Positions 3,776 through 54,639 of a DNA stretch of 64,000 nt are shown here, piece by piece. This stretch comes from a virus, in IMG/VR virus record IMGVR_UViG_3300044737_000031, positions 1 through 64,000 of that record, one strand, 5' to 3'. The position numbers and the translations under genes were made by a program. Below the pieces are notes generated by a model. The model searched no databases, was not told the origin of the DNA, and saw only the letters and a list, made by a program, of their open reading frames with translations. How positions within the stretch are numbered: position 1 is the stretch's first letter; each line of letters begins with the position of its first letter.

Positions 3776-5485
3776 CTACCCGGCCAGCGCCGGCGCGAGT
3801 TGCACCGTAGTGCCCTCAAATACCACGAGCTTGCGCCGATCCAACCGCCGCAAATACTCGTTGCGCGTGGATTTCTTGAACCCGGTGACTGTATCGATGG
3901 CCTCGCGCTCAATGCCGGATTGTTCCGAGACAGCTTTAAACACGGCCGATTCGCCGCCCGGCAATTTGCCGATCCAATATTGGATCAAGTCTTGTCCGGT
4001 GGGCAACGGCTCGTACGGGCCGAGCCACACCAATCCTTTGGGCGTCATTTGATACCAACCGGCGCGCTCTATCACCAACTCGTATCGTATCAACCTCCGC
4101 AAGTATTCGTTGCACGAGCTTTTTTTGAATCCGGCCAGCGCAATCAACTGAGCTTTGCCAGCCTCGCCAAGTTGCGCGATGGCCACGGCCAATCGCCGCT
4201 CGCCGGCACCAAGATCAATATCATCAAACGCCTCGCCAGTGGCCGCTGGCGGCCGCGGTGGTGGCGCGCTGATCGGGCGCTTGGCCGGCGGAATGTGTGC
4301 GGGCGGTTTGATCGGTGGCGGTACCGGTACTCTGGCATTGCCGGCCGAAAACAGTTTGGCCAAATCCGCGTTGGCCGCATTGAATTTATTGACGGCCTCG
4401 CACATCATCTTGCCGGCCGCTTCCATGCGCTTGGCTTGCGGCCCGCCGATTACCACGATCTTTTGTTTGACCACGGGCGCGGCTGGCTTGGCGCTTTCGC
4501 GCGCGGCCGCTCCCAACAACTTTTGATGTTCGCGCCGCAACTCGGCCAGTTCCTTGCGCAGTTCCGCGGGATCATCGGCCTTGGCCCGTTCCAATGTCTC
4601 GGCCATTTCCTTGCGCAACACATCCAGATCAACCGGGGTAAGCTCGCGCTGTTTGATTTTGCGTGCGCCATGTTTGGGCGTACTGGAAACATCCGCGGTG
4701 CGTTTCTGGCCAATTAAATACGTGTCATCGATCTTCAACCATTCGCGCGAAACAATCCGCGCGTGGCCGGTTTCCAGTGTGGGCAACGCATCCAAGATGC
4801 CGGCGGGCGCGCCCTTGTAATCCACCCAACGTTTGATGGCGGCCCGCTCGTGCGGCCCAACGATCCGAAAGGCCAACACGCACTCGGTGAGGTTGAGCGC
4901 CTTTTTACTCGTGTCTTGCGGCCGTTGCGTAATCAGGCTCATGCCAATGCCGAAATTGCGGCCGAGCTTGGCCATGCGCACGAATACATGCAGCATCAGC
5001 GTTTCATTTTTCTGCGGTTCCTCTGGCAAGATTTCTTGCGCTTCCTCAAAGAATAAATGCACGGCCGATGGCTTTTGCTGTTTGCGAAAGAAAAACCGTG
5101 CGCCGAAATCGGAAAGCCACTTGGCCCTATCGGTGTCGAATTCGATTTGGGATAAATCGATTACCGCGGATATGCGCCGATCCACGATCAGATCGGCAAT
5201 GCGCCGGCCGCTTCCCGGCTCAAGCGGCACATCCCCATGCAACCCGCCAAACACGGGAATGGAAAACCCCGGCTCGCCTTTCTTGGCCCCGGCGCGCAAT
5301 CCCCACCACACGCCAACGGGATCGATGGCCACAATTTGTGCGCCGGCGTCCAGCATGCATTCGGCCAGCTTGGTGGCCCCGTAGGTTTTGCCGCTGCCGA
5401 TCGTACCGAGGAAACCAAAGCGTTGCGTGATGGCGGCAAGCGGCAACTTGAGGCCGTCGCCTAACGATAGCTCCCGCTTGCTCAC
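3776..5485 (-). CDS. HerA-like (DUF87/VirD4-type) ATPase with two C-terminal winged-helix repeats
   Basis: 569 residues. N-terminal HerA/FtsK-superfamily ATPase: Walker A GTIGSGKT (residues 27-34), Walker B VHLFFEEAQEI, sensor-like SLITQRPQD. A Lys/Glu-rich helical stretch (~295-330) and a Pro-rich linker (~400-420) follow. The C-terminus has two copies of a ~60-residue winged-helix-like unit, each with GFKKSxxNEYLRRL (residues ~475 and ~545). Family knowledge: HerA-type motors pump DNA, often with a NurA nuclease, and related ATPases occur in conjugation and defence systems. No NurA is visible. The repeats suggest a sequence-specific DNA-binding tail. The 242-codon downstream-named neighbour at 5482 overlaps its start by ATGA, so they are coupled. 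Confidence 0.8.
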   Translation of the reverse strand: MSKRELSLGDGLKLPLAAITQRFGFLGTIGSGKTYGATKLAECMLDAGAQIVAIDPVGVWWGLRAGAKKGEPGFSIPVFGGLHGDVPLEPGSGRRIADLIVDRRISAVIDLSQIEFDTDRAKWLSDFGARFFFRKQQKPSAVHLFFEEAQEILPEEPQKNETLMLHVFVRMAKLGRNFGIGMSLITQRPQDTSKKALNLTECVLAFRIVGPHERAAIKRWVDYKGAPAGILDALPTLETGHARIVSREWLKIDDTYLIGQKRTADVSSTPKHGARKIKQRELTPVDLDVLRKEMAETLERAKADDPAELRKELAELRREHQKLLGAAARESAKPAAPVVKQKIVVIGGPQAKRMEAAGKMMCEAVNKFNAANADLAKLFSAGNARVPVPPPIKPPAHIPPAKRPISAPPPRPPAATGEAFDDIDLGAGERRLAVAIAQLGEAGKAQLIALAGFKKSSCNEYLRRLIRYELVIERAGWYQMTPKGLVWLGPYEPLPTGQDLIQYWIGKLPGGESAVFKAVSEQSGIEREAIDTVTGFKKSTRNEYLRRLDRRKLVVFEGTTVQLAPALAG

Positions 5486-37167: not shown

Positions 37168-37376
37168 TGGTTTTGTTTCCCTTGGATCATTTGCGCTTTG
37201 TTCTGCGTGGTGCCTAACAGCTTTTTGGCGTCCTGTAGAATCGAAAGGAAATCGGCGAGGCTTTGCGCGCTATTGGCCCGGCCCACAATCTCACGATAGC
37301 GCATGGCGATTTCCGGCCCGGCCTTTTCTTCAACGCCTTTGGCCAGCCTATCGATTTCGGCTTGTTCGATCCTCAC
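37164..37376 (-). CDS. Hypothetical helical protein, 70 aa
   Basis: GTG start in a GTGA overlap with the exonuclease stop, giving MRIEQAEIDRLAKGVEEKAGPEI. Entirely helical, charged. The frame is open further upstream but inside the exonuclease gene. Function unknown. Confidence 0.55.
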   Translation of the reverse strand: MRIEQAEIDRLAKGVEEKAGPEIAMRYREIVGRANSAQSLADFLSILQDAKKLLGTTQNKAQMIQGKQNQ

Positions 37377-38050
37377 GCGAATAATTCCGGCGAGTTGGCG
37401 GTATCGGCCAGTGGCACCGGCTTTGGTGCCGCCGGGATCGGCTCGGCCGCCCACGCGAATCGTTCCATTAGTGTTTCGCGATGGTTCCGCATCATTTCAA
37501 AAAAACATGCGCTCGTGGCCAAACAATCATCAAGCGGATTGTGCGCGCCCTCAAACGGTTTTCCAAACAGGAATGTGTGAAGCTCGGTAAGCGTAGGCCA
37601 TTTGAAATCCGCGCCGGGAAAGTTAGGCCGCAACCGGCAAACGGGCACACCCATTTCCTTGGTGCAACGAATCGGCTTTTCATCCAACCGATGTTTGACG
37701 CCTTCCCGGTGGCTGGCCGTTCGGATAATCATCTCATCAAAATCGGCGTTGTGGGCAATCAGTTCATCCGCAAGCTTGCAGAAATTCGAAAACACGGCCA
37801 GCGCCACGCGCCGGCCCACTCCAAATTGCATCGCGATTTCTTGCGTGATCCCGTGCACCGCGGCCGCCGCCGGTTCGATCACCCATCCATCGGGTTTAAT
37901 GATCAACTCAAATGAGCCGCGCCGCTTTTCGGTTTCATCCATCAACAGGCCGCACAACATGACAAGATCGGGTTGGTGCTTGGCCGTATAATGCGCCTTG
38001 AAATCATTCTTGCCCGTGGTTTCCGAATCAAACACCAATCGTAATTTCAT
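37373..38050 (-). CDS. DnaQ-type 3'-5' exonuclease (DEDDh)
   Basis: 225 residues from MKLRLVFDSETTG (ATGA overlap). ExoI FDSETTG, ExoII IAHNADFDEMI, ExoIII AHNPLDDCLAT, with the His five residues before the Asp: a complete DEDDh site. Could act in proofreading, nucleotide scavenging or end processing. Its location between portal/MuF and scaffold genes is unusual for such an enzyme. Confidence 0.85.
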   Translation of the reverse strand: MKLRLVFDSETTGKNDFKAHYTAKHQPDLVMLCGLLMDETEKRRGSFELIIKPDGWVIEPAAAAVHGITQEIAMQFGVGRRVALAVFSNFCKLADELIAHNADFDEMIIRTASHREGVKHRLDEKPIRCTKEMGVPVCRLRPNFPGADFKWPTLTELHTFLFGKPFEGAHNPLDDCLATSACFFEMMRNHRETLMERFAWAAEPIPAAPKPVPLADTANSPELFA

Positions 38051-38613
38051 ACCGTTGCCTTTCCCGCGCATGATTTAGCCGGTGATGACCAGTGCTCAAA
38101 CCGGCCGCTGTATCCCGGTTTTCTCGCATCAACAAAACCGCGCACCGGTTGCGCCACGTTCATCATTAACCCATCGCCGCCATTCAACTTTGAATCAGGA
38201 TGCGTGCACGTTAGGCCATCGCGAAATTTACAATCCAAACACAAGTGCATCATTGAGCCGGGCCATGGTTTGTTTCTGTCCATGCGCGAATACAACCGCG
38301 GATGCGGTTCGATAATCCGGCGCGAACAACTTGGACAAAGCACCACGATGATTAAAGCAAGATCGGCGCGGCCGGCCACACGATTGCCCGGCCCATCGTT
38401 GTCATTGTGCTCTATCCAGCGTTCAAGCCATAACCGGGCGCTTTCCTCGTTCATGCCGAGGCCATCCGGTTTACGGCCGCAACTCTGGCACGTGTCCGGT
38501 TGGCGCGGATGTTCAAGCGTAACGCTTAATCGCGGAAACTTTTCCTTTTCGGCCGGCTCTTGGCCCGGCTTTGGCAATTTTCCGGTACGCGTAAATGTCG
38601 GATCAAGCGGCAT
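38047..38613 (-). CDS. Cys-rich hypothetical protein, 188 aa
   Basis: Cys clusters TCQSCGRKPD, VVLCPSCSRRIIEPH and LCLDCKFRDGLTCTHPD indicate two to three zinc sites; the first two flank a helix (LWLERWIEHND) in the manner of an HNH-like or RING-like treble clef, but no catalytic His pair is evident. Function unknown. Confidence 0.6.
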   Translation of the reverse strand: MPLDPTFTRTGKLPKPGQEPAEKEKFPRLSVTLEHPRQPDTCQSCGRKPDGLGMNEESARLWLERWIEHNDNDGPGNRVAGRADLALIIVVLCPSCSRRIIEPHPRLYSRMDRNKPWPGSMMHLCLDCKFRDGLTCTHPDSKLNGGDGLMMNVAQPVRGFVDARKPGYSGRFEHWSSPAKSCAGKATV

Positions 38614-39098: not shown

Positions 39099-39335
39099 TC
39101 AATGCACCAAATCAGCGCCACCCGTGGCCGCCGGCGCTTTGGTGATCACTAGGCCGCCCAATAGATCAGCCACCACCACGGCCCGGCGGTAATCGATATC
39201 AGGGATGGAAGGCGAATCATCCACGCCGGCCGAAACCTTTTTGATCATGGCCAGTAATTTGGGATCGGCGCATTCCCATTTTCCATCGTTGATCGTGGCC
39301 AGCGTATTCGGTGCAAATTCAATCGTGGTTTTCAT
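39099..39335 (-). CDS. Hypothetical protein, 78 aa
   Basis: MKTTIEFAPNTLATINDGKWECADPKLLAMIKK...; coupled to the MuF gene by ATGA. Small alpha/beta protein; may be a capsid factor by position. Confidence 0.55.
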   Translation of the reverse strand: MKTTIEFAPNTLATINDGKWECADPKLLAMIKKVSAGVDDSPSIPDIDYRRAVVVADLLGGLVITKAPAATGGADLVH

Positions 39336-42052
39336 TTTCGTATCAGTGAATAGATAAAATCGAAGTACTCAGGATCACGCGCGGCGAATTCGGCCGGGTT
39401 AAACCACATATGTTCCAAACCCATCGAAAGAATCTCGGTGGCGTACGTCTCGCCATTCTTGCGCAAATATATCTTGCCCATGTACGGATCAATGAATTTA
39501 TCCGGCTTGGCCACTTCAATGTTTTTGTAACCGAATCCCGGTTGCAGCCGGTTTAATTTCTTGGCCGCCTCGCCGGCCGTGCGTGCGCTCAAAAATTCCC
39601 GGCACTTGGCGGCCACGTTGGGTTGGGTGGCCTCAATCCAGTGGCCAAGCTCGTGCAAGGCGGTGCGCGCCGTGCTCGCCGTCGAATGCAGCCGGGTCAA
39701 TCCGTTCAACTCGCAATAAGCTCGTGTGACACGCGGCGGTGTATGCGCGAATTCGGCCACGTCACTCAACAGGCCGTTGGATGCCAGCTTGTTCAAAATT
39801 GAAACTCCCTCGCGCGCAATGCCGGCCACTCGTTCGCCGCCCTCACGGAATTGGGCGCGGATTGTCGATCGTACATCCGCCTCTAATTCCAGACGGCCGC
39901 GCATCTTGGCGATAGTCGATGCGTTTTCAAAAAGGTAATCGGCATTGATCTTGGTGAGAGTGCCGCGCAACGCCACCAACTCGGCTTGCATTTGTTTCAA
40001 CGCGGCATCCTCAACCGCGGATGGAATTTGCCCACCGAGGTACGCCATATTCCATCGCTTGTTGAATGCGTCACTAAATGCCTTCAATCCAGCTTGCGCG
40101 GTTTCGCGTTCCGTTTTGAGCGCCAACACACGTTCGCCGGCGGCCGTGAATTCGCCGCGGATCGTGGCCGATTCTTCCAAGATGGCAGTGCGCCGGGCGG
40201 CCGCGGCATCGGCTGCTTGTTGGGCGGCCACGCGCGCCGCTTCCGCCAAGCGCTCGGCCTCAAGCTGTTTGGCCTCGGCATCGATCACCGCCTTTTTGGA
40301 TGCATCAGCTTCCGCGGTTTTCTTGGCGGCCACAAAATCAGGATCAAAGAAAGCTTGCGGGTTGGCCACGTCCGGCAATTTGCTGACGTAGGCTCTGGCC
40401 GATGGCACCACCGAGTTGACGGGCGCAACATCCACTTTCAGCGAACCCGTTAGGTTGGCCGCCTCTTTCATGGCCGCCAAATCGGTTTTGCCCGCGCCGG
40501 CGTTGGCTATGGCCAGATTGATTTCGCGCGCATCGGCCGCGGTGAAGCTTTCCCGGCTGGCGCGCAAGCTCACACTCACCACCTTGCCATCCGGGGTGAC
40601 AATGCGCGCGCCATTGAAATTGGGGATATCGGCAAACAACCGAATTTCCTGTGGGGTGAATACCTCGCCGGCGGCCGTGGCGTTTCGCAGATAGGTGACG
40701 CTGGCAAACTGTTTGAGCTTTTCCAGATCGGCAACGGTTGGCGATGTGCCGCGGATCGAAAGCCGCATGCCGTTGGTGGTGTCCAGAAAGTGCGACATGA
40801 CGCCATCGGTATTCGATCCAAACACAATCGATTCCTCCAACAGCTTTCGCTCAAGCAGGCCAAGGCCGTTTTGGCCCTCTTTGTATTTCGGTTCCGGCAA
40901 CGTCTCGTTTTTGGCCACGAGCGCGCGCAACTCATCAATGGAAAGCGGCCGGTGTGTCTGATCGATCAAATCGGTGAGCGTTATTTTTCCCTCGCGCCAC
41001 AACTGCGCCTTTTGCACGCCAAGCAAATCGTTTTGGAATTGCGCGGTTTGCCGTTTCAAAAACTGATCCATCGATTGCCGCGGTGCCGGCTCGCCGTTCA
41101 ACTGAAATTTCTTTTTGGCCACAATGGCATCAATGGCAGCCGCATCGAATCCCTTGGCCTCAAGATTCTGGCGAAAGATCGTTTCAATATCCGCCGGCGG
41201 TAAGTCCGGCGGGTTTACGGCCTTTGGCCCGCTCAGTTCCTTCCACGATTTCGTGACAGCAATTTGTGTGGATCGGCAATTCCAATGCGCAATCGGGCCG
41301 GGAAACGGCACGGTGTGATCAATCGGCTCGTACTCGGGCAAACTCCATTGCTTGCCATCCAAGGCAACGCATATCTCGGTGGTGCGACTGTCTAGCGTGC
41401 TCACCCATTGCACCGCGCTGATCACGTCCAGATTGTTTTCGAACGAATCCAGCTTGGTTTGATTGGCCGTGGCCATCACCGATGTGCGTACGATCGCCTC
41501 GGCTTGCGATTTCTTTAAGTTGAGGATCGGCGATACCCGGCGCACGAGCGCGGCCACTCCCTCGCCTTGGTAGATTCCCATGCGCATGGCCGCTTCGAAT
41601 TGCTTTTTCAAATCGTACGCCTGTTGATCCCACCATTGCGATTGGAACCGGCCTTTTATGAGCGTGTCACCGGCCAGCCGTTGTAATTGCTCTTTGGTTA
41701 GGCCAACCGATATCACATCCACGCCAATGGCCGCGTTGTACGCCTTGGCGGTTTTGCTTTCCTCTATCCCGGCCAGTTGCCCCAACTGCTTTCCCTGATT
41801 GGCGGCAATCGTGGCGTACGCCTCATCAATGATTGTTTTGGTTTGCGCCAAGAGCGCGCGCAACCGGGCGACTTTCACCGCGCCGGCATCTTCCGGCAAC
41901 GCTTGAATCTCCGACACGATGCCTCTTTCCAGCGCAATCAACTGATCAAACACCGGGCCGCGCAACTCGGCCGCCACGCGCAAGAGGTTGACGTGATGCG
42001 TTACAATCGCATCCGCCACAATCTGAGAAATGTTTGGAGTGGCCGCGGCCAT
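39332..42052 (-). CDS. MuF minor head protein fused to HExxH metallopeptidase-like domain
   Basis: 906 residues. Residues ~135-290 carry the MuF (SPP1 gp7) signature: EAIVRTSVMATANQTKLDSF, VQWVSTLDSRTTEICVALDGKQW, PIAHWNCRST. A middle beta domain and a long Ala/Glu coiled coil (~585-720) follow. The last ~110 residues have ALHELGHWIEA (HExxH) and downstream TYATEILSMGLEH, where a Glu could be the third zinc ligand. Family knowledge: MuF proteins bind portal and are packaged; some carry toxin or enzyme tails injected into the host. A peptidase effector is plausible. Follows the portal directly. Confidence 0.85.
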   Translation of the reverse strand: MAAATPNISQIVADAIVTHHVNLLRVAAELRGPVFDQLIALERGIVSEIQALPEDAGAVKVARLRALLAQTKTIIDEAYATIAANQGKQLGQLAGIEESKTAKAYNAAIGVDVISVGLTKEQLQRLAGDTLIKGRFQSQWWDQQAYDLKKQFEAAMRMGIYQGEGVAALVRRVSPILNLKKSQAEAIVRTSVMATANQTKLDSFENNLDVISAVQWVSTLDSRTTEICVALDGKQWSLPEYEPIDHTVPFPGPIAHWNCRSTQIAVTKSWKELSGPKAVNPPDLPPADIETIFRQNLEAKGFDAAAIDAIVAKKKFQLNGEPAPRQSMDQFLKRQTAQFQNDLLGVQKAQLWREGKITLTDLIDQTHRPLSIDELRALVAKNETLPEPKYKEGQNGLGLLERKLLEESIVFGSNTDGVMSHFLDTTNGMRLSIRGTSPTVADLEKLKQFASVTYLRNATAAGEVFTPQEIRLFADIPNFNGARIVTPDGKVVSVSLRASRESFTAADAREINLAIANAGAGKTDLAAMKEAANLTGSLKVDVAPVNSVVPSARAYVSKLPDVANPQAFFDPDFVAAKKTAEADASKKAVIDAEAKQLEAERLAEAARVAAQQAADAAAARRTAILEESATIRGEFTAAGERVLALKTERETAQAGLKAFSDAFNKRWNMAYLGGQIPSAVEDAALKQMQAELVALRGTLTKINADYLFENASTIAKMRGRLELEADVRSTIRAQFREGGERVAGIAREGVSILNKLASNGLLSDVAEFAHTPPRVTRAYCELNGLTRLHSTASTARTALHELGHWIEATQPNVAAKCREFLSARTAGEAAKKLNRLQPGFGYKNIEVAKPDKFIDPYMGKIYLRKNGETYATEILSMGLEHMWFNPAEFAARDPEYFDFIYSLIRK

Positions 42053-50992: not shown

Positions 50993-51313
50993 TTAGTCCG
51001 GCGGGTTATCGAATGCGGGCAAGACAAACAGCAATTTGCCGTGCTTGTCGCCAATCTGATAAAGCATGCCCGGCCGGCTGGCGCTCGGTTTCTTAAACAC
51101 CACCGGATCACCGCTCAAGCTCAATTCTAAATCATCGCTTGGCATTTCGGGCGGTGCCGGCAACTCGGTGGTGCCGATCACGTACAATGGTTGCCGGTTC
51201 GATTCCTCTTTGTGCAAATCGCCGTGGCCCAACACCGTGAAGATCAGCAACCCGGTGGCTATCGCGTTCCAAAATGCAAATATCGTCAACGTTTCGTTTT
51301 TGTACGCGTTCAT
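50993..51313 (-). CDS. Small membrane protein next to kinase-like gene
   Basis: 106 residues from MNAYKNETLTIFAFWNAIATGLLIFTVLGHGD (one TM span), then a Pro-rich linker and beta-rich end. ATGA overlap with the kinase-like gene. Could be its membrane partner or target (inference). Confidence 0.5.
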   Translation of the reverse strand: MNAYKNETLTIFAFWNAIATGLLIFTVLGHGDLHKEESNRQPLYVIGTTELPAPPEMPSDDLELSLSGDPVVFKKPSASRPGMLYQIGDKHGKLLFVLPAFDNPPD

Positions 51314-51837
51314 CGCCACCATTTCGCTTTCTGTAATCGGCCATTCTTGGCCAGTTGAGTAAACAATCTGTGATTGCTGTAATCGAAGCATACCGCCCGG
51401 CCCTTGTACCATCCCCAATTCTCGGTTTTCAAATCCCACAGAAAGCCGGGCACCATCTTTGGCCGATCCGCCTTGGCCAGCTTTTCGCATCGCGCTTGCA
51501 ACAGCCAAATGCCGCAAGCTGATATCGAGTGCACGGGCGCGAGGAATTTCTGAACATGCTTGGCCGCGTTTAACTCACACCAAATCTGATGCTCGGTGAC
51601 ATTGGCGAATTGTTGCGCTTGACGCTCAAACTTAATCACCATGCGCGGATCAAAGCCGCACGCGTACACATCGCGGTATTGTCCCTCGCCGATCTTGTCA
51701 CCGATCAGCCATTTGAGCGCATCGTTAATCGATAGCTCGCCGAAATCGATGCTTGGCAACGTCAATTCGCGCAACGGCCGTTGCCCGGCTGCCATCCGGC
51801 CGATCCGCGCCCAACTGTCTTGCGAAGCGCTTCTCAC
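51310..51837 (-). CDS. Miniature protein-kinase-like protein
   Basis: 175 residues from a GTG (GTGA overlap). Kinase landmarks in order: Gly loop IGEGQYRDVYA (50-59), strand-3 Lys69 in VIKFE, aC-type Glu (82 or 88), hinge-like region ~111-118, catalytic loop WDLKTENWG (Asp135, Asn140), metal-binding Asp152 in CFDYS. Asp135-LKTEN matches the classic DLKxEN, except the preceding HR is W. The protein stops ~23 residues later, so the C-lobe is almost absent. May phosphorylate a host or phage protein, or be a binding pseudo-domain; the residues favour activity. Confidence 0.75.
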   Translation of the reverse strand: MRSASQDSWARIGRMAAGQRPLRELTLPSIDFGELSINDALKWLIGDKIGEGQYRDVYACGFDPRMVIKFERQAQQFANVTEHQIWCELNAAKHVQKFLAPVHSISACGIWLLQARCEKLAKADRPKMVPGFLWDLKTENWGWYKGRAVCFDYSNHRLFTQLAKNGRLQKAKWWR

Positions 51838-52550
51838 TGGCGCACGGCCACGCTGTAAATCCACGCCTCACCGTCCCAATGGTAATCAGTCACCACGAGA
51901 ATGGGCGCGGCCGGGTTGCTCGTGATCCGCACAAGCTCGCCGCATCGGAACCGGCGCACATCGGCCGGGATCACCGGATACAGCGTGTTGCATTCCTTGC
52001 CCATGTATCCGGGTTGTTTGGGATCAAGGAAAAGGGAATTGCCGTACTCAACCTCGCTTGCCGGTACGATGATGTGACGGCCGGACGGTATATCGTTGGC
52101 AAACCCCAACTCTTTTTGCGCAATCTCAGCGCGCGGTTGTTGCGCCAGTGCCGGCAAGGCCAGCGCGGCAAACAGGATGATCAGTGCTTTGGTTTTCATA
52201 GTGGTAGTTCCGCGTTTGGATTTGAAAGTGTCTTTGAGCACACCGCCGGCAACATCGCCGGCCGTTTTAAATTCGGGCGCATCAACTTTCGTGGCCGCGG
52301 TGCCGTTGTCTTGCTGCAACGCTGTACAAAACTTCCGATGGGCCGCATCCAATTTCTCTTGCGCGGCATTGAGCGCTTTGGCCGCCTCTTTCAATTCATC
52401 GGTGGCAAACCCCCATGTGGCCATCGCCTTGCCGTGCCAGTGCCCAAACACCTTAATGCGCTTTGGCGCTATCTCGGCCGCGGTGATGGCGTATTTGCCG
52501 CTCATGTCCAAGCGGTAAACGATTTCTCGGATTGGGTTGGGTTTACTCAT
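51834..52550 (-). CDS. 238-aa protein with in-frame internal signal peptide
   Basis: Residues 1-117: helical domain (ELKEAAKALNAAQEKLDAAHRKF). At 118 begins MKTKALIILFAALALPALAQ, a complete Sec signal with ALA cleavage, followed by a beta-rich ~100-residue domain (CGELVRITSNPAAPILVVTDYHWDGEAWIYSV). No stop between. Either a fusion or a second gene read from an internal start at ~52199. GTGA coupling to the kinase-like gene makes it a candidate partner. Confidence 0.6.
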   Translation of the reverse strand: MSKPNPIREIVYRLDMSGKYAITAAEIAPKRIKVFGHWHGKAMATWGFATDELKEAAKALNAAQEKLDAAHRKFCTALQQDNGTAATKVDAPEFKTAGDVAGGVLKDTFKSKRGTTTMKTKALIILFAALALPALAQQPRAEIAQKELGFANDIPSGRHIIVPASEVEYGNSLFLDPKQPGYMGKECNTLYPVIPADVRRFRCGELVRITSNPAAPILVVTDYHWDGEAWIYSVAVRQ

Positions 52551-52879: not shown

Positions 52880-53167
52880 TTATTTTAGAAGCTCAACCAA
52901 GTATGTCATGCGCGGCATGGGCGGTGCCGTGCCCGCCTCAATCTCGGCCTTGTGCGCGTCCGCTATCTTGCACACGTATTCCGGTGCCATGTAGGCGGCC
53001 AACCGATCATCGCCCATATCCCGCGCGAGGCCGAGCGTTGGGAAGGCAAACAGTAAATCAAACACGGTGCGCTGTTTCAGTACACCCGATGGGATGATAT
53101 CAAACGGCCGCTTGTCGCCAGCCTCAACGAAAAGGCCATCGGGGTTGTACAATCGGTGCAATGTCAT
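52880..53167 (-). CDS. Hypothetical protein, 95 aa
   Basis: MTLHRLYNPDGLFVEAGDKRPFDIIPSGVLKQRTVFDLLFAFPTLGL...; helical/beta mix. ATGA overlap with TerL; the next promoter lies within five bases of its stop. Function unknown. Confidence 0.55.
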   Translation of the reverse strand: MTLHRLYNPDGLFVEAGDKRPFDIIPSGVLKQRTVFDLLFAFPTLGLARDMGDDRLAAYMAPEYVCKIADAHKAEIEAGTAPPMPRMTYLVELLK

Positions 53168-54639
53168 GTGCCCAATATTTTCATCGGGCCGCGCCGGCCG
53201 ATCTTGCGTTGCACTCCATAGGTGACGCCATCAAAGGCGTGATCTTCCGCGTTATCATCCACATCCTCTTGATTGTTTTTATCGCGCGGAAGCGATGGGA
53301 TCAACTCAATCGCGTTGATGCATGTATTGAAAAACTGTATCCCCGGCCGCCGATCAGGATCATACCGGCTTGGCTGCAACAGCCGATGCAAGTTTTGCAC
53401 ACGTTGCACGCGCGAGCCGGGCCACTTCTCAACCGGTTTCCATTTGCATCCAAGATCGTTCATTTGCTCGCCGCGGCTTTTGGTGGATGCGCCGGTTTTA
53501 CTGAATGCGGCCGAGTCCAACAACCCATCAAGCGTGTGTGTGTTGATGATCGTTTGCCCGCGCCCCAACCCGGCATCCAGTTCAATCGATAGATCACGCT
53601 TGCGCACAAGCTCGGCCACGCCTTCCGGGGTCAACATCGTTTTGTATAACTCGGCAATCACAAAAAACGTGCGCGTGTCGGGATTGCGTGTGAGCCAATA
53701 GCCGGCAAAGGGCGCGCCATAACCATCATCCGCGCCGCGCCAGATTTCCCACCCGGCCGGGATCGGAAACGGTTTAATCACATGCCAGCCTTGGCCACGA
53801 TCATCCACATCGCGCCACACATCGCCAAACATTGAGCCGGCCACAATCTTCCAATCACCGGTAAGCATCGCGCGCACCAAGAGCGGATCACCCAACCCCT
53901 GTAGGCGCTGGATGTACGCGGGATCATCTTCCATCAGGCTCGGATTGTCTTTGACTTGCGCCGGGATGTACCGGCGGATCATGCCGCCTTCAATGGCCGG
54001 CGTTTGCCACGCTTGCAACCCGTGATCCACCCAACCTTTCTTCACCCACGCGTGGCCGATGTTGCCGGGGTTGCTTCCGCAAATCACTTTGGGAAATTGC
54101 GCGGCCAAATGCGCCGGCATGCCTTCCAACCCAACCTTGCGCAACCGGCCGCGCAAAAACAAATACATGGACCGTGGCCAGTGGGTTAATTCGTCAATCA
54201 ACAGCAAGTGAATTTCCGCGCCCTGATATTTATAAATATCATTCTCGTACTGGCAGTGCGCCAACGTGATGCGCGAGCCATTCCAAAAAACGATTTTCTT
54301 GGCGCGTATCCAACACATGCCGGCCGCAATCATCGGTGCCAGCAACATGGGGAAGCTCTTTGGCCCTTCCATGTGGTTGTTGATCAATTCCGGTGATGTG
54401 CGCCGGAACAGATAGCAAGACAGGCCGGGGATTTGGCAGCAAAACAGAATGGCCGCCACCCGCATCAAATGGCTTTTGCCGCCGCCGGCCGCGCCGCCGT
54501 ACAGAATCTCGGTGGCCGCTGAAAGGAACGCTTTAAGTTGTTGGGGATGCAGGACGAATTGAGATTCCACCCGAATCGCTTTGCGATTGGCGGCCTTCTT
54601 CGCTTTGCTTCCCCTTGCCGGGTTGAGTATGTCCAACAT
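53164..54639 (-). CDS. terL: Terminase large subunit
   Basis: 491 residues. Walker A GGAAGGGKS (~48-56), Walker B LLLIDELTHW, then nuclease acids in IWRGADDGYG, a GLGRGQTI..DSAAF stretch and EDHAFDGVTYG. Terminase_6-type packaging motor and nuclease. The ATG at 54639 overlaps TerS by 107 bases; a GTG at residue 24 (~54570) is an alternative start that keeps all motifs. Confidence 0.9.
   Translation of the reverse strand: MLDILNPARGSKAKKAANRKAIRVESQFVLHPQQLKAFLSAATEILYGGAAGGGKSHLMRVAAILFCCQIPGLSCYLFRRTSPELINNHMEGPKSFPMLLAPMIAAGMCWIRAKKIVFWNGSRITLAHCQYENDIYKYQGAEIHLLLIDELTHWPRSMYLFLRGRLRKVGLEGMPAHLAAQFPKVICGSNPGNIGHAWVKKGWVDHGLQAWQTPAIEGGMIRRYIPAQVKDNPSLMEDDPAYIQRLQGLGDPLLVRAMLTGDWKIVAGSMFGDVWRDVDDRGQGWHVIKPFPIPAGWEIWRGADDGYGAPFAGYWLTRNPDTRTFFVIAELYKTMLTPEGVAELVRKRDLSIELDAGLGRGQTIINTHTLDGLLDSAAFSKTGASTKSRGEQMNDLGCKWKPVEKWPGSRVQRVQNLHRLLQPSRYDPDRRPGIQFFNTCINAIELIPSLPRDKNNQEDVDDNAEDHAFDGVTYGVQRKIGRRGPMKILGT

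What the first reader, a model, noticed from the sequence alone, without database searches (positions are those of the whole stretch)
51310..51837. Phage miniature protein kinase with catalytic residues but almost no C-lobe
The 175-residue protein has the kinase landmarks in order: glycine loop, Lys69, a DLKTEN catalytic loop and a metal-binding Asp152, but ends ~23 residues after the last. Classic phage kinases are longer. It is coupled to a TM protein and to a protein with a signal peptide, suggesting a small membrane-linked signalling unit.
Basis: partly seen in the sequence, partly recalled or inferred. Interest (0 to 1): 0.8.

Follow-up and report, generated by a model that had tools for sequence, protein, structure and literature searches.

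The report
Tiny phage kinase lacking most C-lobe
A small phage protein carries every key active-site residue of a protein kinase but lacks the helices that normally build the lower half of that enzyme, and so do dozens of related phage proteins whose function nobody knows.

Summary
The gene is real, on the minus strand (51310-51837 or -51864). It belongs to an uncharacterised phage family, PHROG 4301 (E 3e-25), with matches in 90 phage records (Yuavirus gp39, Abidjanvirus, Nipunavirus, Nanhaivirus, Lacusarxvirus, Vibrio jumbo phages) and in bacterial contigs including a prophage. In 35 members, 23-41% identical to the window protein, the kinase residues K69, E82, D135, N140 and D152 never vary, nor do glycine-loop Gly52 and an unusual Arg55. 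dN/dS is 0.05-0.18. AlphaFold models of the window protein (pLDDT 86) and of a complete 142-aa relative (pLDDT 93) both match kinase-fold proteins: OspG, NleH, RIO, Bud32/PRPK, HopBF1, APH. Neither model has the alphaD-alphaI helices. The 'membrane-linked unit' does not: both coupled neighbours lack detectable phage homologues, and the gene's context changes between phages. Several records already say 'kinase'. Best reading: an active minimal kinase-fold phosphotransferase completed by its target or a partner; activity and substrate are untested. It resembles OspG and HopBF1 in economy but is smaller.

The parts
51310..51837 (-). Minimal kinase-fold protein, PHROG 4301 family, 175 aa from GTG 51837; an alternative GTG start at 51864 gives 184 aa. 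Conserved core is about residues 33-175.
51664..51690 (-). Glycine loop, beta1-beta2 (GEGQYRDVY, residues 50-58); Gly52 and Arg55 invariant in 35 members
51592..51633 (-). From beta3 Lys69 (MVIKFE) to helix alphaC Glu82 (NVTEHQIW); both invariant
51376..51435 (-). Catalytic loop D135-L-K-T-E-N140, beta7-beta8 hairpin and metal-binding D152-Y-S; D135, N140 and D152 invariant
51834..52199 (-). Upstream neighbour: 121-aa ORF with a clear signal peptide (MKTKALIILFAALALPALAQQ), overlapping the kinase start by GTGA; no phage homologues found
50993..51313 (-). Downstream neighbour: 106-aa ORF with one predicted TM segment near the N-terminus, overlapping the kinase stop by ATGA; no phage homologues found
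53164..54639 (-). Terminase large subunit, 1.3 kb upstream on the same strand (context)

Best explanation
The gene encodes a stripped-down but catalytically equipped kinase-fold phosphotransferase. ATP-Mg would sit between a normal N-lobe (glycine loop, K69-E82 salt bridge) and a reduced lower platform made only of the catalytic loop (D135 base, N140) and the beta7-beta8 hairpin leading to D152. There is no activation loop, no alphaE/alphaF scaffold and no alphaG substrate shelf, so I infer that its protein target, a partner or a second copy supplies the missing surface, as an E2-ubiquitin conjugate does for OspG. It most likely phosphorylates a host or phage protein during infection as an accessory, non-core function. 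Shown: residues, invariance, purifying selection, predicted fold, absence of C-lobe helices in the models. Inferred: ATP binding and phosphotransfer, a protein substrate, need for a partner.
For: K, E, D, N, D and the glycine-loop Gly and Arg are invariant in 35 members 23-41% identical to the window protein. dN/dS is 0.05-0.18 in six close pairs. AlphaFold: window protein pLDDT 85.6, pTM 0.75; complete 142-aa relative pLDDT 92.9, pTM 0.86. The listed PDB matches are kinase-fold proteins, led by OspG, RIO and PRPK/Bud32 (best E 7e-5). VIA-align best Z 9.5 (HIPK2), PRPK 9.2 over 139 residues, HopBF1 8.7 over 127. Weak profile hits point the same way: YrbL 0.0015, APH 0.07, HopBF1 0.009, AceK 0.5. 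The OspG precedent for activation by a partner is from PMC9950578.
Against: No biochemical data. No sequence-profile match to a named kinase family reaches its curated cut-off. TM-scores to solved kinases are moderate (0.39-0.64 on the 142-aa query). Z values are only modestly above the tool's stated background of 7 to 8. OspG, NleH, HopBF1 and SteC all keep more C-lobe, and SteC pieces cut short in the C-lobe are inactive (PMC13395416).
Confidence: 0.68

Rival explanations
1. A pseudokinase-like nucleotide binder: it holds ATP-Mg and acts as a switch or inhibitor by binding a partner, without phosphotransfer.
For: The C-lobe that normally binds substrate and anchors the active site is missing from the models; SteC pieces cut short in the C-lobe are inactive.
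Against: The catalytic Asp135 is invariant in all 35 members; pseudokinases usually lose it, and E. coli YrbL lacks it (sequence TMSLKPQN).
Confidence: 0.15
2. A kinase for a small molecule or nucleic acid rather than a protein, in the manner of aminoglycoside phosphotransferases; in several phages it sits among DNA metabolism genes.
For: APH structures are among the matches, one member hits Pfam APH at 0.07, and it neighbours exonuclease, DNA polymerase or thymidylate synthase genes in YuA, Lacusarx, XM05, L036 and L030.
Against: APH-type enzymes bind the small substrate with C-lobe helices that are absent here; elsewhere the gene lies by terminase, tail-fibre or DNA-ejection genes, so no single pathway is implied.
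Confidence: 0.12
3. One part of a membrane-linked phage signalling unit together with the signal-peptide protein and the TM protein.
For: Translational-coupling overlaps on both sides; small TM proteins also follow the gene in Lacusarx and XM05, and a signal-peptide protein in GR7B.
Against: No homologue of either neighbour in phages or in 31 other family loci; in Yuavirus, Abidjanvirus and Nanhaivirus the neighbours examined show no membrane segment.
Confidence: 0.04

Closest known systems
PHROG 4301 (Pseudomonas phage YuA gp39 and relatives), unknown function
   Same: Same family: E 3e-25 for the window protein, up to 3.5e-57 for other members; same catalytic residues and same small size (142-205 aa)
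   Different: The window protein is divergent (about 41% identity at most to other members) and has its own unconserved N-terminal extension and neighbours
OspG / NleH1-NleH2 minimal effector kinases
   Same: Top Foldseek match; minimal kinase with reduced C-lobe; OspG is activated by a bound partner
   Different: OspG and NleH kinase chains in the matches are 159-171 residues; the phage core is about 142 residues with no alphaE/alphaF in the model; no sequence-level membership shown
HopBF1 minimal atypical kinase
   Same: Weak profile hit to the window protein (E 0.009, residues 45-103) and VIA Z 8.7 over 127 residues for the 142-aa relative
   Different: Far below the family cut-off (15 against 200 bits); aligned HopBF1 span is 162 residues against 134 here
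YrbL (PF10707), kinase-like protein of the PhoP network
   Same: Similar glycine loop with Arg and beta3 Lys (G..R.CY....IK); best Pfam hit 0.0015; hhalign probability 43% over 27 columns
   Different: The E. coli protein lacks the catalytic Asp and has 105 residues from Lys to catalytic Asn, against 71 here
RIO kinases and Bud32/PRPK
   Same: Compact kinases; among the best fold matches (PRPK Z 9.2, RIO1 8.7)
   Different: Span 180-238 residues over the aligned range, against about 140 here

Membership tests
PHROG 4301 (YuA gp39 family) | Profile match over the conserved core | tested here: met
   E 3.1e-25, residues 47-167 of the 184-aa form; 12 of 12 members match
Protein kinase-like fold superfamily | N-lobe beta sheet with glycine loop, beta3 Lys and alphaC Glu | tested here: met
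   DSSP of models; G52, K69, E82 invariant
Protein kinase-like fold superfamily | Catalytic D....N and metal-binding Asp in a beta7-beta8 arrangement | tested here: met
   D135, N140, D152 invariant; fold matches
Protein kinase-like fold superfamily | ATP binding and phosphotransfer | not testable with these tools
   needs purified protein
Canonical (eukaryotic-type) protein kinases | Activation segment ending in APE, then alphaF to alphaI | tested here: not met
   Only 17-43 residues after the metal Asp in 35 members; at most one short helix after DYG in the models
Canonical (eukaryotic-type) protein kinases | alphaD and alphaE between hinge and catalytic loop | tested here: not met
   Lys to catalytic Asp 64-81 residues, median 65; no helix of 4 or more residues there in either predicted model
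HopBF1 (NF035942) | Profile score above the curated cut-off of 200 bits | tested here: not met
   15.4 bits
YrbL (PF10707) | Profile score above the curated cut-off of 31.5 bits | tested here: not met
   The window protein has no hit; 4 of 35 members hit weakly, best E 0.0015
OspG/NleH effector kinases | Sequence homology over the kinase domain | tested here: inconclusive
   No OspG or NleH chain at E <= 10 with the family profile, but clear fold similarity

The most novel reading that the evidence does not exclude
A widespread phage family of active protein kinases of about 142 residues that works without alphaE, alphaF or any substrate-binding C-lobe: smaller than the minimal kinase structures it was compared with here, with the target or a partner completing the enzyme.
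Probability: 0.35. Interest if true: 0.75.

Novelty: new variant of a known kind. Interest (0 to 1): 0.52.

Why it matters
If active, it would lower the known bound on how much of the kinase fold is needed for phosphotransfer and would test what the alphaE/alphaF scaffold is really for. It also gives a candidate function to a PHROG of unknown function found in well-studied Pseudomonas aeruginosa phages (YuA, M6, PaMx11), where gene removal is practical in laboratory strains.

Tried and rejected
Single-sequence searches of Pfam and the PDB found nothing (the PDB hits ERV1 and a G-beta subunit look like chance). A single-protein pattern scan of IMG/VR found nothing; the alignment scan worked. 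The literature searches found no paper on PHROG 4301 or on YuA gp39 as a kinase; the YuA genome paper did not appear among the results. PADLOC gave one weak hit (mad6, 0.047) that I do not rely on. Considered and dropped: a link to hypermodified-thymidine synthesis in M6, because the DNA kinase of that pathway is, to my knowledge, a P-loop enzyme and family members also occur in unrelated phages. SAICAR synthetase appeared once in the fold list (Z 7.7), but the D....N plus DYG motif pattern is kinase-type. Fold families missing from the VIA lists were not tested.

Full report
What is there. The reading frame at 51310-51837 is on the minus strand and gives 175 aa from GTG 51837; an upstream in-frame GTG at 51864 would give 184 aa. 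The first 32 residues are weakly predicted (pLDDT 54-65 in the first three blocks) and are not shared with relatives, so the true start is open. The window is part of a 69,059-base IMG/VR virus record.

It is a family. Pfam has no match, but PHROG 4301, 'unknown function', matches at 3e-25. tblastn finds relatives in 90 phage records, all below 60% identity: Yuavirus (YuA gp39), Abidjanvirus, Nipunavirus, Nanhaivirus, Lacusarxvirus, Erythrobacter phages and Vibrio jumbo phages. There are 25 IMG/VR loci, 7 bacterial contigs, and 6 of 195 genomes from the bacterial family of the Janthinobacterium host carry it. In L045 it lies in a prophage, near a DNA-ejection gene. Some records already call it 'serine/threonine-protein kinase', 'kinase', 'protein kinase' or 'cyclin-dependent kinase-like 5', and one 'structural protein'.

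It looks catalytically competent. In 35 aligned members, 23-41% identical to the window protein, G52, R55, K69, E82, D135, N140, D152 and Y153 never vary; position 137 is Lys or His. dN/dS in six close pairs is 0.05-0.18. This argues for a working active site rather than a pseudokinase.

The fold. The AlphaFold model of the window protein (20 sequences, pLDDT 85.6, pTM 0.75) and that of the complete 142-aa PaMx11 protein (26 sequences, pLDDT 92.9, pTM 0.86) agree: N-lobe strands, alphaC, hinge strand, catalytic loop, beta7-beta8. Foldseek against the PDB gives OspG, RIO, PRPK/Bud32, NleH and canonical kinases. VIA-align gives Z up to 9.1 and 9.5 with kinase-fold chains, with HopBF1 at 8.7. These Z values are only modestly above the tool's stated background of 7 to 8, but nearly every listed row is a kinase-fold protein (SAICAR synthetase, usually regarded as a structural cousin, is the exception) and the invariant residues fall in the right places. 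Viral models (BFVD) return the family itself first (PaMx11 TM 0.91 on target) and then other small phage proteins and viral kinases.

What is missing. No helix of four or more residues lies between the hinge strand and the catalytic loop, and at most one short helix follows DYG. Lys to catalytic Asp is 64-81 residues (median 65), Asp to Asp 17-27, tail 17-43. In E. coli YrbL, Lys to catalytic Asn is 105 residues against 71 here. Aligned spans in solved kinases are longer: NleH1 157 against 134, HopBF1 162 against 134, PRPK 180 against 140, RIO1 238 against 147. So 'almost no C-lobe' is right for the whole family, as far as prediction can say.

Sequence links to known kinases are weak: YrbL best 0.0015 and hhalign probability 43% over the glycine loop and beta3, HopBF1 0.009, APH 0.07, AceK 0.5 over the D...NFG...DYA stretch. 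None reaches a cut-off. I therefore place the protein in the kinase-like fold superfamily, but in no named kinase family other than PHROG 4301.

Context. The GTGA and ATGA overlaps with the signal-peptide and TM ORFs are real. Neither neighbour has a phage homologue or a counterpart in 31 other family loci. Elsewhere the gene lies directly after the terminase large subunit (R26L, Pan1), within a few kilobases of it (L019, L041, L043), before an exonuclease (YuA), by DNA polymerase (Lacusarx, XM05, L036), near a tail-fibre gene (L042) or DNA-ejection gene (L045). It behaves like an accessory gene that moves. The membrane-linked unit is not supported, although small TM proteins do follow the gene in Lacusarx and XM05.

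Mechanism. Best supported: an ATP-dependent phosphotransferase whose substrate surface is completed by its target, a partner or a second copy, by analogy with OspG, which is activated by bound E2-ubiquitin (PMC9950578). Against this stands SteC, whose C-lobe-truncated pieces are inactive (PMC13395416); that result is the main reason for caution. Substrate, partner and activity are inferred, not shown.

Noticed in passing
window 39332-42052 (-): 906-aa head-morphogenesis protein: an N-terminal Mu F-like domain (PF04233) and a long C-terminal part whose last 160 residues match PHROG 33618 and minor head proteins. The C-terminal domain was not identified.
   Followed up: partly
window 3776-5485 (-): 569-aa ATPase with a HerA/FtsK-like P-loop (GSGKTYGA) and weak HerA and terminase matches, far from the terminase at 53164.
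   Followed up: partly
window 37373-38071 (-): DNA polymerase exonuclease-subunit homologue placed within the head gene cluster, between the MuF-like gene and the major capsid gene.
   Followed up: no
L045, L058, L042, L043, L044: A branch of the family in bacterial contigs has DFK(R/K)xNYG in place of DLKxEN(F/W)G, still keeping Asp, Lys and Asn.
   Followed up: no
L010 4477-4611, L011 4506-4628: In Lacusarx and XM05 a 40-44 aa TM protein directly follows the kinase gene, the only hint of a recurring membrane neighbour.
   Followed up: partly
BFVD hits (no window coordinates): Other very small phage proteins (117-170 aa; for example from Aeromonas phage D6 and Serratia phage Yaphecito) also match the kinase fold and may be further minimal kinase-like families.
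   Followed up: no
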